DNA of 35,575 bases from Actinomycetota bacterium (GTDB lineage Bacteria; Actinomycetota; Acidimicrobiia; Acidimicrobiales; Acidimicrobilacustridaceae): positions 1-35,575 of the forward strand of contig WLGJ01000003.1 in NCBI GenBank assembly GCA_009703275.1, given 5' to 3'. Made by a program: the position numbers and the translations under genes. Below the pieces are notes generated by a model that saw nothing but the letters and a program-made list of their open reading frames with translations, ran no database searches and had not been told where the DNA came from. Below are positions 11,644 through 20,071 of the stretch, one piece after another; within the stretch, counting starts at the first letter, position 1; the number at the start of each line of letters is the position of its first letter.

Positions 11644-13110
11644 TTACCACTCGGCTTCGAGTAGCTCGATGAACGACTTCTGGTAGTCCTGATACTGATC
11701 CCAACGTTCGGACAGCCACACATGGGCCTCGCGCTCAGTGAAGCCGTTCGTGCGCATTGCCCAAGCCTTCAACACCAGGCCTGTTCGACTGTGGCCGCCG
11801 TGACAATGCACGACGACGGTGCGACCTTCGGCCAACAACGCGTCGATGGCATCGACAGCGTCGCGCACCGCCGTTACCGGGTCAGCATTTGCCGGCCCGG
11901 ACTGATCGATAAGGAACACTTCGCGCCGCGCAGCGTGGCCGTCGAATGCACCAAATGTTCGACACAGTGACACCACGCCCCACGACACAGGCGCGTCCTG
12001 CGCGCCGAACAAATTCGCGGCGTGCACGCCGGGGGCAACTTCGGTGGGGCCCGCCGACGGCTCGGCTGCTGTGGCCGCAACTGGTCCACGCCCTACTAAG
12101 GCACGGGCCAAATCCTGCAGACCCGCATTGTCGAATCGCACCACACCTTCGGGCGTTTCCAACTCGCCATTGATATAGGTCAACCAACGAGACGGAATGG
12201 CCTGCACGCTGTCTCGCGCGCCAGCAATTGCGCCGGCCACGGTAGCGACCGTGTCGGTGTCGCCGCCTAACTCAATTGCCGCAACCAACACATCTTCGAA
12301 TCGATCGTTATGGCGCACCGCCCAGACCGCCTGGGCCAAACATGTCCACACCGAACCGTTTGAAAGATCATCGGCATTGTTTGGTTCCCATGACACATCG
12401 AGCATTGCCGCGAAACGCTCGCGCTCGTCGGGTTCAACGCGCGCCAACACTTCTGGCAACGCTGCGATGGGGTCTTCCCCCAGCACCGCTCGGCGAATGA
12501 GCGCCGCAGCAATTGCTGCGCCCCAGCCTGCAGCCGCATCGAAGTGCGTGAGTGCTGCTTGCGCTCGAGCAACCGTCATGAGCGTGGCTTCATCGACGCC
12601 ACTCCATGCCAACGCGATTGGCGTAATGCGCATAAGTGCACCGTTTGCTGCACTGCGATTAAGCGCAACGTGTCCGTCATACGCGGCGCCGGGCCAGTCG
12701 CGTCGTGACAACACACGGCCAGTGAGAATCCCGCAGTCCTTCGCTTTACGACGCCAGGCCACGAATCGTGCCCACACATCGTCGGCATCGAATCCGCCAC
12801 TGGCAAGAACCGATTGCGCAAGCGCGAGCGCCATTTGCGTGTCGTCGGTGAATTCGCCAACGCGCCAATTGAATGTTCCGCCGCCGCACATTTCGCCAGT
12901 GCCGCCAAGAACCGGTTCGGGGAAACGTGCTCGATAGGAACCGGCCGGAAGGAACTCGAACGGTGCACCGAGTGCATCGCCAACCGCGGAACCGCACAAT
13001 GCGCCGATCACTCGTTGCACGGTGATCGCATCAAAGCTGGGCGGTTCGGGAAGAGCGATGAAGGCGGGAAGGCCTTCGGCAATGGTGCTGGGTCGTTCGG
13101 GTTCGTTCAT
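11644..13110 (-). CDS. ADP-ribosylglycohydrolase fused to dual-specificity phosphatase
   Basis: A 488-residue two-domain protein. The N-terminal domain (about 30-345) is an ADP-ribosylglycohydrolase: metal-binding EFTDDTQ (T88-D89-D90), and GGDTDT (D284, D286) for the second site, with FEFLP and NGALMR segments typical of DraG-like enzymes. It should remove ADP-ribose from protein, nucleic acid or small molecules. The C-terminal domain (about 360-485) is a Cys phosphatase with the P-loop HCHGGHSR (C436, R442), resembling the separate phosphatase at 1598-2206. The pair could release ADP-ribose and then act on a phosphorylated product. Start ATG 13110 has GAGGAG upstream; a longer frame to 13173 exists. 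It carries the shared motif, 85 bases upstream. Confidence 0.9.
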   Translation of the reverse strand: MNEPERPSTIAEGLPAFIALPEPPSFDAITVQRVIGALCGSAVGDALGAPFEFLPAGSYRARFPEPVLGGTGEMCGGGTFNWRVGEFTDDTQMALALAQSVLASGGFDADDVWARFVAWRRKAKDCGILTGRVLSRRDWPGAAYDGHVALNRSAANGALMRITPIALAWSGVDEATLMTVARAQAALTHFDAAAGWGAAIAAALIRRAVLGEDPIAALPEVLARVEPDERERFAAMLDVSWEPNNADDLSNGSVWTCLAQAVWAVRHNDRFEDVLVAAIELGGDTDTVATVAGAIAGARDSVQAIPSRWLTYINGELETPEGVVRFDNAGLQDLARALVGRGPVAATAAEPSAGPTEVAPGVHAANLFGAQDAPVSWGVVSLCRTFGAFDGHAARREVFLIDQSGPANADPVTAVRDAVDAIDALLAEGRTVVVHCHGGHSRTGLVLKAWAMRTNGFTEREAHVWLSERWDQYQDYQKSFIELLEAEW

Positions 13111-13195
13111 GGGCGACTCCTCAGTCGGGGGATAGGGCGGCTGATCAACGAACTCGTGGCGGGTTCGCAACAAGCTCGGATCAGCCGATGAGGAA

Positions 13196-13291: not shown

Positions 13292-15385
13292 TTAGCCCGT
13301 GAACTTCGGGGCGGAGGGGTCGTCGGGACCAGTTGGTCCGGTACTCCCGCCTTCAAGTTCGAGCGGAATCGTGTACGACTCGGGGAACAGGACAGGTTCG
13401 CCTGGTGTGGGTGGTTCAGCTTCGAAGGCACCAACACCACCGTTGCCACCATTTCCACCGTTGCCGCCAACGCCACCGGTTCCACCAGCACCGCCGTTGC
13501 CACCGAAGGAGGCGGGAGCAAAGCCGGTCGGGCCCGTCGGGCCTTCGGGTCCGGTATCGCCGATGCCACCGATCATGCCCATCATGCCAGTTTCACCCAT
13601 TGGGCCTTGCGGTCCGGTGGGGCCATCTGGGCCGGTTTCACCAACTGGGCCGGTCGGGCCGGTCGGGCCAGTTGGGCCCCATGGTCCGGTATCGCCGGTG
13701 TCGCCCATTGGGCCTTGCGGTCCGGTGGGACCATCTTCGCCGTTCGGTCCAACGATGCCGGTTCCACCTGCAAAACCGGTGGGGCCAGTTGGGCCAGTCG
13801 TGCCCCTAGCTCCGGTCGGGCCAGTCGTTCCCATGGCGCCGGTCGGGCCAGTGGCACCGGGACTACCGGTCGGGCCATTTGCGCCTGTGGGTCCGGTTGA
13901 ACCATCAGCACCAGGTTGGAGATAACGAGAGTTGGGGTCGGGAACGATCGAAATTGATGCTTGAGTGAATGATGGGCCGGTGGGTCCTTCAGGGCCGGTG
14001 GGGCCAGTGGAACCAAAGTCGCCGGGTAGACCTTCTTCACCTAAGGGACCAGTGGATCCTTCAGGGCCAGTAGGACCTTCCTCGCCCATTGGTCCGGTGG
14101 GTCCTTCAAGGCCGGTGGGGCCAGTGGGGCCCCATGCGCCGGTCGGCCCGGGGTTTCCTTGAGGACCAGTTGGGCCCGTTTCGCCGGCCAAGCCCGTGGG
14201 GCCGGTGATGCCGAGGAAACTCGCCGGGCCGGTTGGGCCTTGCGGGCCCTGTGGTCCAGCGAGACCAGTCGGACCAACGCCTAAAGCGCCGGTCGGGCCG
14301 GGATAACCGGTGATTCCAGGCGGGCCGGTTGGGCCGGTGGGGCCATCTTCGCCAACCGGTCCAGGAGCAGCACCGGGCACATAGTTGAAGAGAACAATTG
14401 ATGGAGAGGGGTTTGATGAACGCAGGGCCGAGAACGAACCGAGCGATACGAAGCCGGCTGGAGCGAAAGCGCCGGTTGGACCCTCGGGACCAGTTGGGCC
14501 TGTTTCGCCGGCGAAGCCCGGGTCACCTGTGGGTCCCATGAGGCCGGTCTCTCCGATGGGTCCGGTCTGACCCATCGGCCCGGTCGGGCCCGTCGGTCCA
14601 TCTGGACCGGTCTCGCCCGTGGGGCCTTGTGCACCGGTTGGGCCGTCGAAACCTTGCGGACCAGTGGGGCCCATGTTTCCTTGTGCGCCGGTGGGGCCGA
14701 TGGAAATTCCCTCGGGACCAGTGGGACCAACAGGGCCGATCGGACCTTGCGGACCAGTTGGACCAAAGCCCATCGCTCCGGTCGGACCGAAAGGACCAGT
14801 CACACCCCAGGAGCCGGCTGGGCCAGTTGCGCCTGGCAAACCTTGCGGCGGAGTTGGCGTCACGATTGCGCCAATGAGGTAGTAGCCCTGCGCGTCGGGA
14901 GCGGTTTCGAGTTCGAGTGTGAACTGATTCGCGTTGTCGTTCGTTGCGCCGCTGAACGTTGCGGTGGTGGTGAACGAACCGTCGACAGTGGTTGTGGCGG
15001 TGACAACACGCGTTGCTGACGAATCGCCCGGAGGCATCAAAACGCCGTTCAAATAGGCGGTAATTGTGATTCCAACTGAGGTGCCCGCGGGAAGTGAGCT
15101 GAGACCATCGATGGTGATGTCGCCGTTGACGAATTCAAATGTCGCGGTGATAGAGCCGGCAGGTTCGTCGCCGGCTGCGGTCGCGGCAGCAACACTTTGG
15201 ATGATGTTGAGGTTGCCCGGAAGAAATGTGCGAGCGACAAACAAACCGCCAACACCGGCCAAACCGGTAATGACGCTTCGGCGAGAAAGCGGTCTGGTGT
15301 TGATCTTCTCGCGAGTGGAGAGCTCCTCGTTCGAGGGCGCGTTGCTGTCTTCGGGAACAGAGGAAGCCGAATCAGAACGTTCCAT
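13292..15385 (-). CDS. Tat-exported collagen-like protein
   Basis: A 697-residue protein. Residues 1-55 form a long twin-arginine signal (SRRSVITG with R35-R36, then a hydrophobic stretch [11 protein letters not shown]). A beta-rich domain of about 130 residues follows, then some 420 residues of Gly-X-Y repeats dominated by GPT, GPx and GPTGP triplets, and a Gly/Asn-rich end ([17 protein letters not shown]). Two non-repetitive inserts interrupt the collagen-like part (around residues 310-350 and 480-505). This looks like a trimeric triple-helix surface fibre, comparable in design to the spore-surface BclA proteins, where GPT threonines carry O-glycans. There is no cell-wall anchor motif. Start ATG 15385 has GGAG upstream. 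The glycosyltransferase gene lies 55 bases upstream on the same strand. Confidence 0.9.
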
Positions 15386-15406
15386 AGCGTGTGGGTCTCC
15401 ACCCTG

Positions 15407-15440: not shown

Positions 15441-18400
15441 CTAGTCGGGCTGTGAAGAACGAGTTGGTCTATCGGAGTTGCTCGACAGTGGCAGTTCGGT
15501 CGCTACCGGCTCGAAATCGTGCTGGATGTCGGAATCGCCCGTTCGGCCAGGCCACGCCATGGTGGCGGAAGCGACTGCGGGAAGAGTTTCGAGCGCTCGC
15601 AACTCAGAACCGTGACGCATCGGGAACCAATCGATGCCGTTCTGGATGCCGTCGCGTTCGACGAGCTCAAGGAGATTGCGGGCGCCGGTTTTGGTAACGA
15701 GGTACGCGAACGTGCCGCCGAGGAACTCGGGCCACACCATGGGGCGCCAGCGATCCCGAGGCGCGAGGCCGGTGCGATCAGGGGCGGTGTCCCACTGCAG
15801 TGACCCTAAGAACGCGAGATCGAACTCCGTGGCTTGGGGGAGGTGCCCAAGCGCATCGACCAGTTCGTTCCGAAGGTGCGGAACGAAGGTGGTGTCGTCC
15901 TCGACGATCAACATCATGTCGTCGTCGCCGTCCGCGACCTGTTGCCACAAGTCGATGTGGCTGAGCGCGCATCCGATCAACCCGCGACGGAAATTGAAAT
16001 CGTTGTTGCGGAAGAGATGCTCGATCTCAGGAGTCATCACGAGATCGTGACCGTCGGTACCTTCAACGTGCAGAAACTTTGTTGCGGTTTCGGCATCGGC
16101 TGATGCAGAAAGTCGTTCAGTGAAGTCAGCCCAGCGATCGGGACGCCGCTCAAGATTGATGACACGAATAGGGAGCTTGTCGAAGCGCTTCAGGCCGGTG
16201 AGGACGCGTTCGATCGTTGGGAAGAGCTGGTACTCATCAAGTATCCGCTGCTTTTCGAGTCGGATGGCATCGATACGTTGACTCCATAAATCATCAGCGA
16301 TCGCTTGTTCAATGATGCGCTGAGCCTCAGCAGGGTCTTCGAGTGGAAGTCGAACGAACACATCAGGATCAACGAGTTGTTCAAGGTTGGGACAACCCCA
16401 ATAGAAGCAGAGGCATTCAGAGAGAATCGCGTCAAAAAACTTTTCGGTGACGTAATTGTGCTCGGAGAAATTTTCGACAGCGATTGTGTAGCGATAGGGA
16501 AAGAGTCCGTCGCGCTTATCCCATTCCGGTAGTTCACCCTTGTGTTTGGGCACACCATCGATTGCGCCGCGGCCAAACACATCGATATCGACGTTGTTCG
16601 ACGCGAGGTGTTGCACAAACGCAAGGCGAAGTTTGTGTCCGGGATCAAATGCTTTGTTCGAAACCACCACCGAAAGATCGCGAGTCTTTTCAATAGTTGA
16701 TGGGGTGTTGTTGCCACCACCGAGTTCGGCCCATGTTGAACCGAGATGCCACTCGGCAACGTTCGGAAACTGAGAGTGGGTGCGGACATGCAGTAAGTCG
16801 TCAGGGTTGGGCTCTGACCAATTTCCCCATGTGGCAACTCCGGCGAGCGGTTCCATGTGCAGAACAATGGACCGCTCAGGTTGCACGTCGGTCGGGCCTG
16901 GATGATTCAGGATGACGGTGACGTCAGCATCGGGATCATCAGTGAGGTGAATGCCATTCCACTTGTCATCGCCTTTGGTTTGCCGGGAGAAATGACTGGC
17001 GATGTTTGATGGATCACCCCAGAAGCTAACGAGGCGAACGGTGGTCGTCTCTGTTTGGGGGAGCGTGCGACCAAATTGCGCTTCACCGTTGAGTTCGTAC
17101 GCGTTTGGCCTGCGATTGGGGCCAGTTTCCGATGTGAGCGTTCCAATGTTGACATTGCAGATGTTGTCGAAGAACGCGCTGTGCAATCCGGCGGCGGTGA
17201 ATCGCTTTGCGAACTCAAGCTCAAAGTGAATTGGTTCAGTGCTGAACGCACCGATCTCGTTGATTGCGGATGTGCGCAACATTGACGGCCGAAACGAAAA
17301 GTTCGGCCACCACGAGTTGGTCGGACGGTTCTTTCCGATGTCTCGGTTGAAGATTTCGAAAGCTTCGGTTCCGGGCTCAGCATGGATGTGCACTCGGTAG
17401 GGCTGTTTGCCGCGTGCAGTCGTGCGCAGCTCGCCACCGGGAATGTCCCATTCGCTGGCTAGCTCTGCATAATTCCGATTGAACAACACCTGCCCAATGG
17501 ATAGATCATCTTCAAGGATGGCGATTGCACGGCTGACGTAGGAATCGGGGGCAAAAAACTCCCAGTCGTCTTCAAGGTGCATCCAATAGGGCGAAGAAAC
17601 CTCAGCGCGCAGTATTTCCATACTGCGCGCGTGACCCTTATTGGTGTTGTCCTTCCAAATGAATTCAAAGAACGGGTACCGCTCGGCCATCGCGGCGCGG
17701 TCTTGGTCGCTGGAACCATCGTCGATGCAGATCCATCGATCAATCGCATCGACATCAGTGCAATTGCGCAGGAACGAATCCATCGATCGGTCGAACAGGT
17801 CGCGACGCCGACAGGTGGTAATCGTGAGCGTGACATTGGGATCAACCGCAGGTGATTCGAATCGCTCGGTCAGCCTGGCAATGACATCGAGAGGACGTAT
17901 GCGCTCTTCAGCCAGAAGGTAGGGAAGGCAGAAGTCGCGATTGGAAAGCACCCGATCACGCTGGTCGAGCGGAAGCTTCGAATCGTTGAGCAATTTGGTG
18001 CACTGATCGAAGCTCTCTTGGTAGTTGCCGATGTAATAGGCGGCCATCGAACGCTCATCAGCAGCCTGCCAATTGTGGGCGTCGGCCGACACAAAGAGAA
18101 GGTCGCCATCGGGAAAGTCGATGTCAGTTGCGCGCGCCGCAAAGAGGTGTGCGAGCTGCCATTCGCTGGTTGATCGATAGTGGCGTGCGATTTCCACAAG
18201 AGGTTCGACGCGAGTTGGCCGGGTATTCCACGCATCGAGATACGCAGTGAGCACGCGATCCCACGATGTGCCCATTCGTTGAAGCGCTCGAGCGCGTTGC
18301 ATATGGGAATAGAAAATCTCTTCGTTCCAGCCGCCCATTTGGGTACGCCGCGTGTAGAGGTCGTAGGCCTCGTGCGGGTCGCCAGCGTCCATGCGGCTCT

Positions 18401-19040
18401 GAGCCAAATAGAAAACGGTTCGAGAATCGTCGGGATCGCGTTCGAGTTCGTCACGCAACACCGCGCTATCGCGTTCGTACTTATCGTCAGCGAGATTGCG
18501 TCCGCCCAGTCGACGGGACTCAAGGTGGTACTCGCCGCCCAGTCGCTCAATAGGTCCGCACGGTTCGGTGCAAACCGCGTATTCATGCAGGACGCCGCGA
18601 TATTCCCAGGGGCGTTCGAGTTTGAACAGTTGTGTGCGCCAGTAAGTGAAGCCTGTGCCGATGCGCATTATGTACGCGTCGGCATCGAGCGCATCGAAGT
18701 CAGGTTCGCCAACAAGAAGATCGTCAGCATCCATCATCAACGCGTACTCGGCACTTCCACGGCTGAGTTGAAGCGCTTCAGTTCGGTTGTGAGCGAAGTC
18801 CACCCATTCGCGTTCGTGAAGTTCTCCGGGGATTCCAGCTTCGGCAAAGTAGGAACGGATGAGGTCTTGGGTGCCGTCGGTGGATCCGGTGTCGACAATG
18901 CACCATGAATCAATGAAGGCTCGGACCGAGTCAAAGGCCTCGGTAACGACGTGGGCCTCGTCCTTGACGATCATGACAAGCGCAATGGTGGCGCGCGGGG
19001 GTTCAGCAGAGGTTGCCCTGATTTCTGCCTCACCGGTCAT
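15441..19040 (-). CDS. Four-module glycosyltransferase (GT2-TPR-GT2-GT10-GT25)
   Basis: A 1199-residue cytoplasmic-looking protein. Module 1 (about 18-130) is a GT2 glycosyltransferase with VDTGSTDGT and the MMDADD metal motif, followed by a helical repeat region (about 150-395). Module 2 (about 395-640) is a second GT2, with [10 protein letters not shown] and HLEDDWEF. Module 3 (about 680-950) resembles GT10 fucosyltransferases: [19 protein letters not shown] and the following CFYWGCPN. Module 4 (about 955-1160) is GT25-like, with [20 protein letters not shown] and [10 protein letters not shown]25 contains the animal collagen galactosyltransferases. It sits directly upstream of the collagen-like gene, so building a branched glycan on that protein is likely (inference). 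There is no ribosome site at ATG 19040, so the start is uncertain. All four modules keep their DxD/EDD-type motifs or signature. Confidence 0.85.
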
Positions 19041-19111: not shown

Positions 19112-19480
19112 ATGAATCACGCGGAATCGATCAGCGCCATCACGTTGGTAACAGCCGATATGGCAGCGTCGGTCGCGTTCTATGGGGTGCTGGGCTCGGA
19201 GGTGGTGTTCGGCGGAGTGGAAGCCTCGTTCACCACATTGAAGTTGAACGATGAGCAGTTCTTAAATCTGCAGTTCGATGCGACGTGGGTGCTGCCTGAA
19301 CGCGTATGGGGTCGCTTCATTCTTTGGGTCGACAATGTTGATGCGATGCACAAGGCGTTCATTGCCGCCGGCTTCACGCCGTTGATGGGGCCGTCAGATG
19401 CTGTCTGGGGCGAGCGGTACTTCCATATTCTTGACCCCGCCGGTCACGAGGTCAGCATCGCTCGTCAGATCAGTTCCTGA
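19112..19480 (+). CDS. VOC / glyoxalase-like protein
   Basis: A 122-residue protein of the vicinal-oxygen-chelate fold: ITLVTADMAASVAFYGVLGSEVVFG at the N-terminus (in two strand-helix pieces), a NLQFDATW central strand, and the C-terminal YFHILDPAGHEVSIARQ typical of glyoxalase/bleomycin-resistance proteins. It may bind a metal and act on, or sequester, a small molecule. Start ATG 19112 follows AGAGAGG closely. Its last 87 bases overlap the end of the convergent PQ-loop gene. Confidence 0.85.
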   Translation: MNHAESISAITLVTADMAASVAFYGVLGSEVVFGGVEASFTTLKLNDEQFLNLQFDATWVLPERVWGRFILWVDNVDAMHKAFIAAGFTPLMGPSDAVWGERYFHILDPAGHEVSIARQISS

Positions 19481-20071
19481 GAAGTTGGTTGCTGGGCGTA
19501 CGAGCAACGCCACAACTGCTGTGGTGCCGAGCAATGCTGCGATACCGGAATTGATGATCACGGGGACTTCCCCTGCACCAATTCCATAGGTGAACCACAG
19601 ATAGGAACTCGTAGCGAGAAACGCCCACGCGGCAACGGAAATGCCTGGACCTCGCCCGTGTTGAATTGTGTAGCGAATCTGCGGAAGGTTCACGAGAATC
19701 GAAGCCGGCATTCCTATGTATGCGGGAATGTTCTCGTTGAGAACGCCGAGGCCAAGAAGTACGAGAAGTGAAAAGGCAATGAGGAGTTGCGCGCCGAGAC
19801 GCGTGCGCAGTGGTTTGTCATGAAGCATGAACCAGGAGAGCGGAATCACAAGGATGACCCATGTGCCGTTGGCAATGATTTGCTGCGGTGAGCGCACCGA
19901 AACGCCGTAGGCGAACCACGCCAATGAAGATGTGGCGAGCAGGAGCCATGTAGATGGCGCGATTCCCGCAGCGGTTCGAACCCTTAAAAGGCGAGTGGTC
20001 TGGGTGGATGAACTGACGATCGATGCAACGGCGGCGGCGCCACCAGCAATCTGGGCCCAGAGCGGAATCAC
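19394..20071 (-). CDS. PQ-loop / SWEET-like membrane protein
   Basis: A 225-residue membrane protein with about seven hydrophobic helices. Two related halves carry PQ-loop-like segments: STQTTRLLRVRTAAGIAPSTWLLLATSSLAWFAYG and LVNLPQIRYTIQHGRGPGISVAAWAFLATSSYLWFTYG (only the shared cores LLATSSLAWFAYG and FLATSSYLWFTYG are diagnostic). The repeated core shows internal duplication as in SWEET and related transporters, which move sugars or other small solutes. The tail of about 30 residues (NFSGTDLTSDADLVTGG) is hydrophilic and is encoded opposite the VOC gene. Divergent from the luciferase-like gene. Confidence 0.8.
   Translation of the reverse strand: MIPLWAQIAGGAAAVASIVSSSTQTTRLLRVRTAAGIAPSTWLLLATSSLAWFAYGVSVRSPQQIIANGTWVILVIPLSWFMLHDKPLRTRLGAQLLIAFSLLVLLGLGVLNENIPAYIGMPASILVNLPQIRYTIQHGRGPGISVAAWAFLATSSYLWFTYGIGAGEVPVIINSGIAALLGTTAVVALLVRPATNFSGTDLTSDADLVTGGVKNMEVPLAPDSI

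What the first reader, a model, noticed from the sequence alone, without database searches (positions are those of the whole stretch)
15441..19040. Four glycosyltransferase modules in one polypeptide
Two GT2 domains with intact DxD/EDD motifs, a helical repeat, a GT10 fucosyltransferase-like domain and a GT25-like domain are joined in a single protein. Each module keeps its recognisable motifs, so it is not a degraded fusion. It suggests assembly-line synthesis of one glycan.
Basis: seen in the sequence. Interest (0 to 1): 0.65.

Follow-up and report, generated by a model that had tools for sequence, protein, structure and literature searches.

The report
One-protein glycan factory for bacterial collagen
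A freshwater actinobacterium carries a single protein made of four sugar-attaching enzymes; its gene sits beside a gene for an exported collagen-like protein, and relatives in other bacteria keep the same pairing, so it most likely builds the sugar chains that decorate bacterial collagen.

Summary
In detail: window 15441-19040 (minus strand) is one 1199-aa protein with GT2 + TPR, a divergent second GT-A/GT2 domain, GT10 and GT25 modules. It is not an assembly artefact. The same order occurs at 46-91% identity in independent assemblies of Acidimicrobiia and two betaproteobacterial MAGs, and every module is under strong purifying selection.

Fifty-five bases downstream lies a 697-aa collagen-like protein with a Tat-type signal, rich in Gly-Pro-Thr and with no lysine in its collagen region. 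In 12 of 12 informative multi-GT loci the enzyme lies beside a collagen-like gene (three are gene starts at contig ends), in at least four arrangements. The N-terminal module is of the type of C. difficile SgtA (GT2+TPR), shown in vitro to put beta-GlcNAc on Thr of its neighbour BclA3. The GT25 module resembles human procollagen galactosyltransferase and mimivirus R655.

Best explanation: a cytoplasmic multi-enzyme that starts an O-glycan on collagen Thr with GT2-TPR and extends it with GT2b, GT10 (probably fucose) and GT25 before Tat export. The acceptor is well supported; sugars and order are inferred. Both ingredients were known separately; the fused synthase is a new variant.

The parts
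15441..19040 (-). multi-glycosyltransferase ORF, 1199 aa (ATG start); no predicted membrane segment (highest 19-residue hydropathy 1.09)
   Evidence: homologues
18501..18989 (-). GT2a catalytic domain (residues 18-180), SunS/ThuS/GmaR-like peptide glycosyltransferase type
17871..18500 (-). TPR-type helical repeats (residues 181-390)
   Evidence: profile matches to TPR chains; helices in model
17073..17843 (-). GT2b: divergent GT-A glycosyltransferase domain (residues 400-656)
   Evidence: Pfam GT2 E 0.001, below cut-off; GT-A fold; relatives in giant viruses at 38-40% identity
16197..17045 (-). GT10 (fucosyltransferase-like) module (residues 666-948)
15495..16178 (-). GT25 module (residues 955-1182), closest solved relatives mimivirus R655 and procollagen galactosyltransferase 1
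15396..15405 (-). purine-rich AGGGTGGAGA upstream of the collagen gene's ATG, possible ribosome binding site; GT stop to collagen start is 55 nt
   Evidence: read by eye
13292..15385 (-). collagen-like protein, 697 aa, proposed acceptor
   Evidence: Pfam Collagen 1.4e-42; only collagen-family locus found in this genome assembly
15176..15295 (-). Tat-type signal ([19 protein letters not shown] at residues 35-36)
   Evidence: sequence; recurs in most partner collagens
13424..14842 (-). interrupted Gly-X-Y region (residues 182-654): 136 triplets, 37 GPT, 59 Thr in Y, no Lys
13295..13309 (-). C-terminal PKFTG, recurring PxF(T/A)G ending of several partner collagens; function unknown

Best explanation
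The protein is a cytoplasmic, single-chain collagen O-glycan synthase. The N-terminal GT2-TPR module (SgtA type) recognises the unfolded or nascent collagen-like protein encoded next door and attaches the first sugar to threonines in the Y position of Gly-Pro-Thr triplets. GT2b, GT10 (probably L-fucose from GDP-fucose) and GT25 then add further sugars while the growing glycan stays close to the same enzyme. The glycosylated collagen trimer is exported folded by the Tat pathway and forms a surface or secreted glycoprotein fibre; the sugars probably stabilise and hydrate the triple helix in place of hydroxyproline. Shown here: domain content, conservation, purifying selection, adjacency to Thr-rich collagen genes, Tat-type signals, and that gene neighbours in one phylum are fused modules in another. 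Inferred: acceptor identity, sugar identities, order of addition, and function of the coat.
For: (1) Adjacency: collagen-like gene beside the multi-GT in window, L041, L043, L044, L046, L061, L062, L063, L064; in L040, L042 and L008 the contig ends in the first part of the collagen gene, and for L008 its end and the start of another contig (L188) share the same peptide. Arrangements differ (downstream same strand, downstream convergent, upstream divergent, upstream same strand). One collagen locus in 1.89 Mb gives about 0.6% chance per locus. (2) Precedent: SgtA (GT2 + TPR, 358 aa), encoded immediately upstream of bclA3, adds beta-O-GlcNAc to Thr of its collagen-repeat peptides in vitro (PMC7157674). 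(3) GT25 module: best PDB relatives are R655 (1.3e-33) and procollagen galactosyltransferase 1 (5e-20). (4) Collagens linked to these GTs have more Thr in Y (median 0.55 against 0.21 in unlinked; Mann-Whitney p 9e-7, Actinomycetota only 1.4e-5); no Lys in the window's collagen region. (5) Paralogue control: a 686-705-aa GT2-TPR protein of the same genus never has a collagen neighbour (8 loci). (6) Fusion evidence: a GT10 + unknown-domain protein is a divergent neighbour in G003 and G004 but is fused to the N-terminus in betaproteobacteria; in G003 the fused GT10 is missing and the neighbouring one remains. (7) gmd (GDP-mannose 4,6-dehydratase) is present in this genome.
Against: No biochemistry; sugars and order unknown. 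G161 encodes a close GT2a-TPR plus partial GT2b protein with no collagen gene in 14 kb, and some shorter GT2-TPR relatives also lack one (L048, L074, L075, L248), so the initiating module is not exclusive to collagen. Loci are related, so counts are not independent, and the Thr comparison is not corrected for descent. The second enzyme of GDP-fucose synthesis was not clearly identified. The full-length model is weak (pTM 0.44), so module arrangement is not evidence of channelling.
Confidence: 0.78

Rival explanations
1. The protein builds a glycan on another acceptor (a cell-wall or capsular polysaccharide, a flagellin or S-layer protein), and the collagen gene is only a neighbour.
For: GT2, GT10 and GT25 families include polysaccharide and LPS enzymes; one close relative (G161) and several shorter ones have no collagen gene nearby.
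Against: Adjacency in 12 of 12 informative multi-GT loci in several arrangements and two phyla; no polysaccharide export or polymerase gene among the ten window proteins scanned; SgtA precedent.
Confidence: 0.12
2. It glycosylates the collagen, but the modules work in parallel on different sites rather than as one assembly line: for example GT2a on Thr and the COLGALT-like GT25 directly on another collagen residue.
For: Both GT2a-TPR and GT25 have relatives linked to collagen peptides; human COLGALT1 acts directly on hydroxylysine.
Against: The window's collagen region has no lysine; the G136 homologue lost GT10 together with GT2b's DD and EDD residues, which suggests those two work in one pathway.
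Confidence: 0.25
3. The fusion is an assembly artefact or a decaying fusion with one or more dead modules.
For: Metagenome assembly with 228 contigs, 78% complete.
Against: Same order in many independent assemblies; motifs invariant in 10 sequences; dN/dS 0.06-0.11 in every module.
Confidence: 0.02

Closest known systems
Clostridioides difficile SgtA/BclA3
   Same: GT2 + TPR enzyme encoded next to a GPT-rich collagen-like protein; adds beta-O-GlcNAc to collagen Thr in vitro (PMC7157674)
   Different: SgtA is 358 aa with one GT; the enzymes that cap its GlcNAc were not found. Here three more GT modules are in the same chain and the collagen carries a Tat-type signal. SgtA itself was not aligned here
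SunS/ThuS and GmaR (GT2 peptide glycosyltransferases)
   Same: Best structural and profile matches of the N-terminal module
   Different: SunS and ThuS are S-glycosyltransferases; NCBIfam SunS match is far below cut-off (20.5 against 350 bits)
Procollagen galactosyltransferase 1 (GLT25D1/COLGALT1) and mimivirus R655
   Same: GT25 module homologous over about 170-230 residues
   Different: COLGALT1 uses hydroxylysine; no lysine acceptor here. R655 is only a putative collagen enzyme (PMC9546862)
Chlorovirus PBCV-1 A111/114R and A064R
   Same: Several GT domains in one protein making successive parts of one glycan (PMC9614988)
   Different: Viral capsid N-glycan; different domain families and acceptor
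Giant-virus GT2 proteins (Homavirus, Harvfovirus, Pithovirus LCPAC104)
   Same: GT2b domain 38-40% identical with matching fold, in proteins of 713-825 aa
   Different: Their other domains and neighbours could not be read here

Membership tests
SgtA-type collagen Thr O-glycosyltransferase | GT-A/GT2 domain followed by TPR repeats | tested here: met
SgtA-type collagen Thr O-glycosyltransferase | encoded next to a GPT-rich collagen-like gene | tested here: met
SgtA-type collagen Thr O-glycosyltransferase | transfers GlcNAc to collagen Thr | not testable with these tools
   needs an enzyme assay
GT2 (second domain, GT2b) | Pfam GT2 score above the curated cut-off | tested here: not met
   19.3 against 23.3 bits; fold is GT-A, so it is called a divergent GT-A domain
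GT10 fucosyltransferase | GT10 C-terminal signature above cut-off, with conserved EN...NYVTEK | tested here: met
   32 against 23.9 bits; E856, N857, N862, Y863, T865, E866, K867 invariant in the 10 aligned homologues
GT10 fucosyltransferase | uses GDP-fucose | tested here: inconclusive
   gmd above cut-off in the genome, second enzyme not clearly identified
GT25 | GT25 profile above cut-off, NLxRRxDR and EDD | tested here: met
   52.7 against 24 bits
Collagen hydroxylysine galactosyltransferase (COLGALT) | acceptor Lys/Hyl in Gly-X-Y repeats | tested here: not met
   no Lys in the partner's Gly-X-Y region; so not filed as a COLGALT
Bacterial collagen-like protein (partner) | Gly-X-Y repeats above Pfam Collagen cut-off | tested here: met
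   143.7 against 27.2 bits
Sequential multi-domain GT (A111/114R type) | several GT domains in one chain that build one glycan | tested here: inconclusive
   domains met; single product not testable by sequence

The most novel reading that the evidence does not exclude
A modular family of single-chain collagen O-glycan synthases exists across Actinomycetota, Betaproteobacteria and giant viruses. The string of fused modules encodes the sugar sequence, starting from one SgtA-like GT2-TPR initiator with exchangeable extension modules (GT2b, GT10, GT25, an Anp1-like domain in Mesorhizobium, an unnamed 220-aa domain in betaproteobacteria), and it decorates Tat-exported collagens before secretion.
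Probability: 0.45. Interest if true: 0.75.

Novelty: new variant of a known kind. Interest (0 to 1): 0.62.

Why it matters
Threonine-rich collagens are common in bacteria, but how they are glycosylated is known for very few; for C. difficile BclA3 only the first enzyme is known. A one-gene pathway beside its substrate makes the whole modification testable with two genes, could supply Thr-glycosylated collagen as a material, and offers a natural case of enzyme fusion encoding a glycan. It also gives a concrete hypothesis for collagen-like fibres and GT2-TPR genes on phage and giant-virus genomes.

Tried and rejected
Assembly artefact or decay: rejected. COLGALT-type lysine modification: rejected for the window's partner, whose collagen region has no lysine. 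Full-length copies on plasmids or named phages: plasmids gave only the N-terminal third at under 60% identity, phages 9 records of the N-terminal module at under 60% identity. Viral scans with GT2b and GT25 single sequences found nothing; the GT2b profile found only 24-34% relatives without collagen. Promoter and terminator pattern scans: no excess over shuffles. Identity of the unnamed betaproteobacterial domain: no clear Pfam or PDB relative. L188 was first counted as an unlinked collagen and moved to linked.

Full report
Observation. Window 15441-19040, minus strand, is one uninterrupted 1199-aa ORF. Pfam recognises GT2, GT10 and GT25; profile and fold searches place residues 18-390 with the GT2 peptide glycosyltransferases SunS, ThuS and GmaR plus a TPR array. 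Residues 400-656 are only a marginal Pfam GT2, but a model with pTM 0.87 has a GT-A fold. The protein has no strong hydrophobic segment, so it is probably cytoplasmic. The full-length model has mean pLDDT 71 and pTM 0.44 and says nothing reliable about how the modules are arranged.

Real or artefact. Five other genomes of the genus hold the same full-length order at 91, 71, 69, 69 and 53% identity, and a sixth has the first 650 residues at 98% before its contig ends. Four more MAGs, two labelled Actinomycetota/Acidimicrobiia and two betaproteobacterial, hold it at 46-49%. Identity is fairly even across modules, so they have travelled together. dN/dS against the 91% homologue is 0.06-0.11 for each module. 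Motif residues of all four modules are invariant in ten sequences. The order is rare: 5 of 397 genomes sampled in the taxonomic order carry a GT2b domain, which fits horizontal spread.

The neighbour. Fifty-five bases after the stop codon, behind a purine-rich AGGGTGGAGA, starts a 697-aa collagen-like protein (13292-15385, Pfam Collagen 1.4e-42). It begins with a Tat-type signal ([11 protein letters not shown]...), has 136 Gly-X-Y triplets of which 37 are GPT, Thr in 59 Y positions, and no lysine in the collagen region. It is the only collagen locus found in this assembly.

Adjacency. Nine multi-GT loci have a collagen-like gene next to them on the same contig: window, L041, L043, L044, L046, L061, L062, L063, L064. 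Three more contigs end in the first part of such a gene (L040, L042, L008); for L008 the contig end and the start of another contig (L188, a Thr-rich collagen ending PKFTG) carry the same peptide. That is 12 of 12 informative loci; L007 and L045 end inside the enzyme gene. The arrangement differs between lineages, so this is not one inherited pair. A GT2-TPR paralogue of the same genus (686-705 aa) has no collagen in any of 8 loci. The reverse look is also informative: 20 collagen loci chosen by Pfam score had none of these GT modules within the fetched flanks (one, L188, was later linked), and their Y-position Thr content is lower (median 0.21 against 0.55, p 9e-7; Actinomycetota only 1.4e-5). 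These counts are not corrected for shared descent, and Thr in Y is common in bacterial collagens generally (PMC8968730).

Mechanism. C. difficile SgtA is a 358-aa GT2 + TPR protein encoded immediately upstream of bclA3; purified, it adds beta-O-GlcNAc to Thr of BclA3 collagen peptides, and native peptides carry further capping sugars whose enzymes were not found (PMC7157674). The N-terminal module here has that architecture and that kind of neighbour. The C-terminal GT25 module is related to procollagen galactosyltransferase 1 and mimivirus R655; R655 is so far only a putative collagen enzyme (PMC9546862). GT10 enzymes are usually fucosyltransferases (general knowledge), and gmd is present in the genome, but the second fucose enzyme was not clearly identified. 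Tat exports folded proteins (general knowledge), which fits glycosylation and trimer formation in the cytoplasm first.

Modularity. G136 has GT2a-TPR-GT2b-GT25 without GT10, and its GT2b has lost the DD and EDD residues, as if these two modules were lost together. In G003 the fused GT10 is absent, while a separate GT10 + unknown-domain protein is encoded divergently next door; G004 has both (L045 and L046 overlap by 363 bases at 98.9%, so they are read as one gene). The same GT10 + unknown-domain pair is fused to the N-terminus in the betaproteobacterial L061 and L064. Mesorhizobium L181 has GT2-TPR, an Anp1-like domain and GT25 beside a Thr-rich collagen. This points to a common initiator with exchangeable extension modules.

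Against. G161, with a close GT2a-TPR and a partial GT2b, has no collagen within 14 kb; several shorter relatives also lack one. The initiator therefore can serve other acceptors. No sugar, linkage or order is shown.

Novelty. Collagen Thr glycosylation by GT2-TPR enzymes and multi-domain GTs that build one glycan (PBCV-1 A064R and A111/114R, PMC9614988) are both known. I found no description of the two combined in the papers searched. I file it as a new variant of a known kind.

Noticed in passing
L087-L166 (IMG/VR), e.g. L091:5998-7215 with L091:13-3313: Over 200 viral contigs match the query profile; the 80 fetched encode the GT2-TPR module at 39-52% identity, and about half have Gly-X-Y runs within roughly 6 kb, including fibre-like proteins with GPTGPTG. 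Suggests phages glycosylate collagen-like fibres.
   Followed up: partly
window 13295-13309; L041, L043, L046, L051, L066, L188: Partner collagens, most with Tat-type signals, share a C-terminal PxF(T/A)G ending after a conserved (V/L)x(F/W)PxxF-like stretch; possible anchoring or trimerisation tag.
   Followed up: partly
BFVD A0A3G5A8V8, A0A481Z4C0, A0A3G5A4J5: Giant viruses (Homavirus, Pithovirus LCPAC104, Harvfovirus) have GT2b domains 38-40% identical to the window's, in 713-825-aa proteins.
   Followed up: partly
L061:8937-9581 and L045:742-2442: A ~220-aa domain with YLHTKG and HFSGNFWWA motifs, no clear Pfam or PDB relative, is fused behind GT10 beside collagen genes; may be an unnamed glycosyltransferase.
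   Followed up: partly
L179, L180, L181, L068: GT2-TPR genes next to Thr-rich collagen-like proteins in the Cupriavidus metallidurans CH34 megaplasmid, an Enterobacter IncR plasmid and Tatumella (both autotransporter-like), and Mesorhizobium plasmid pWSM1497.
   Followed up: partly
L060/L008: The record titled Bifidobacterium breve (CAMCTY010000043.1) is listed as the same genus as the window's Acidimicrobiia-like genome and carries the multi-GT at 53% identity; the species label is probably wrong.
   Followed up: no
window 11644-13173: 509-aa protein joining ADP-ribosylglycohydrolase and dual-specificity phosphatase domains, downstream of the collagen gene on the same strand.
   Followed up: no
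window 19394-20071: 225-aa protein with two SemiSWEET/PQ-loop-like stretches upstream of the multi-GT on the same strand.
   Followed up: no
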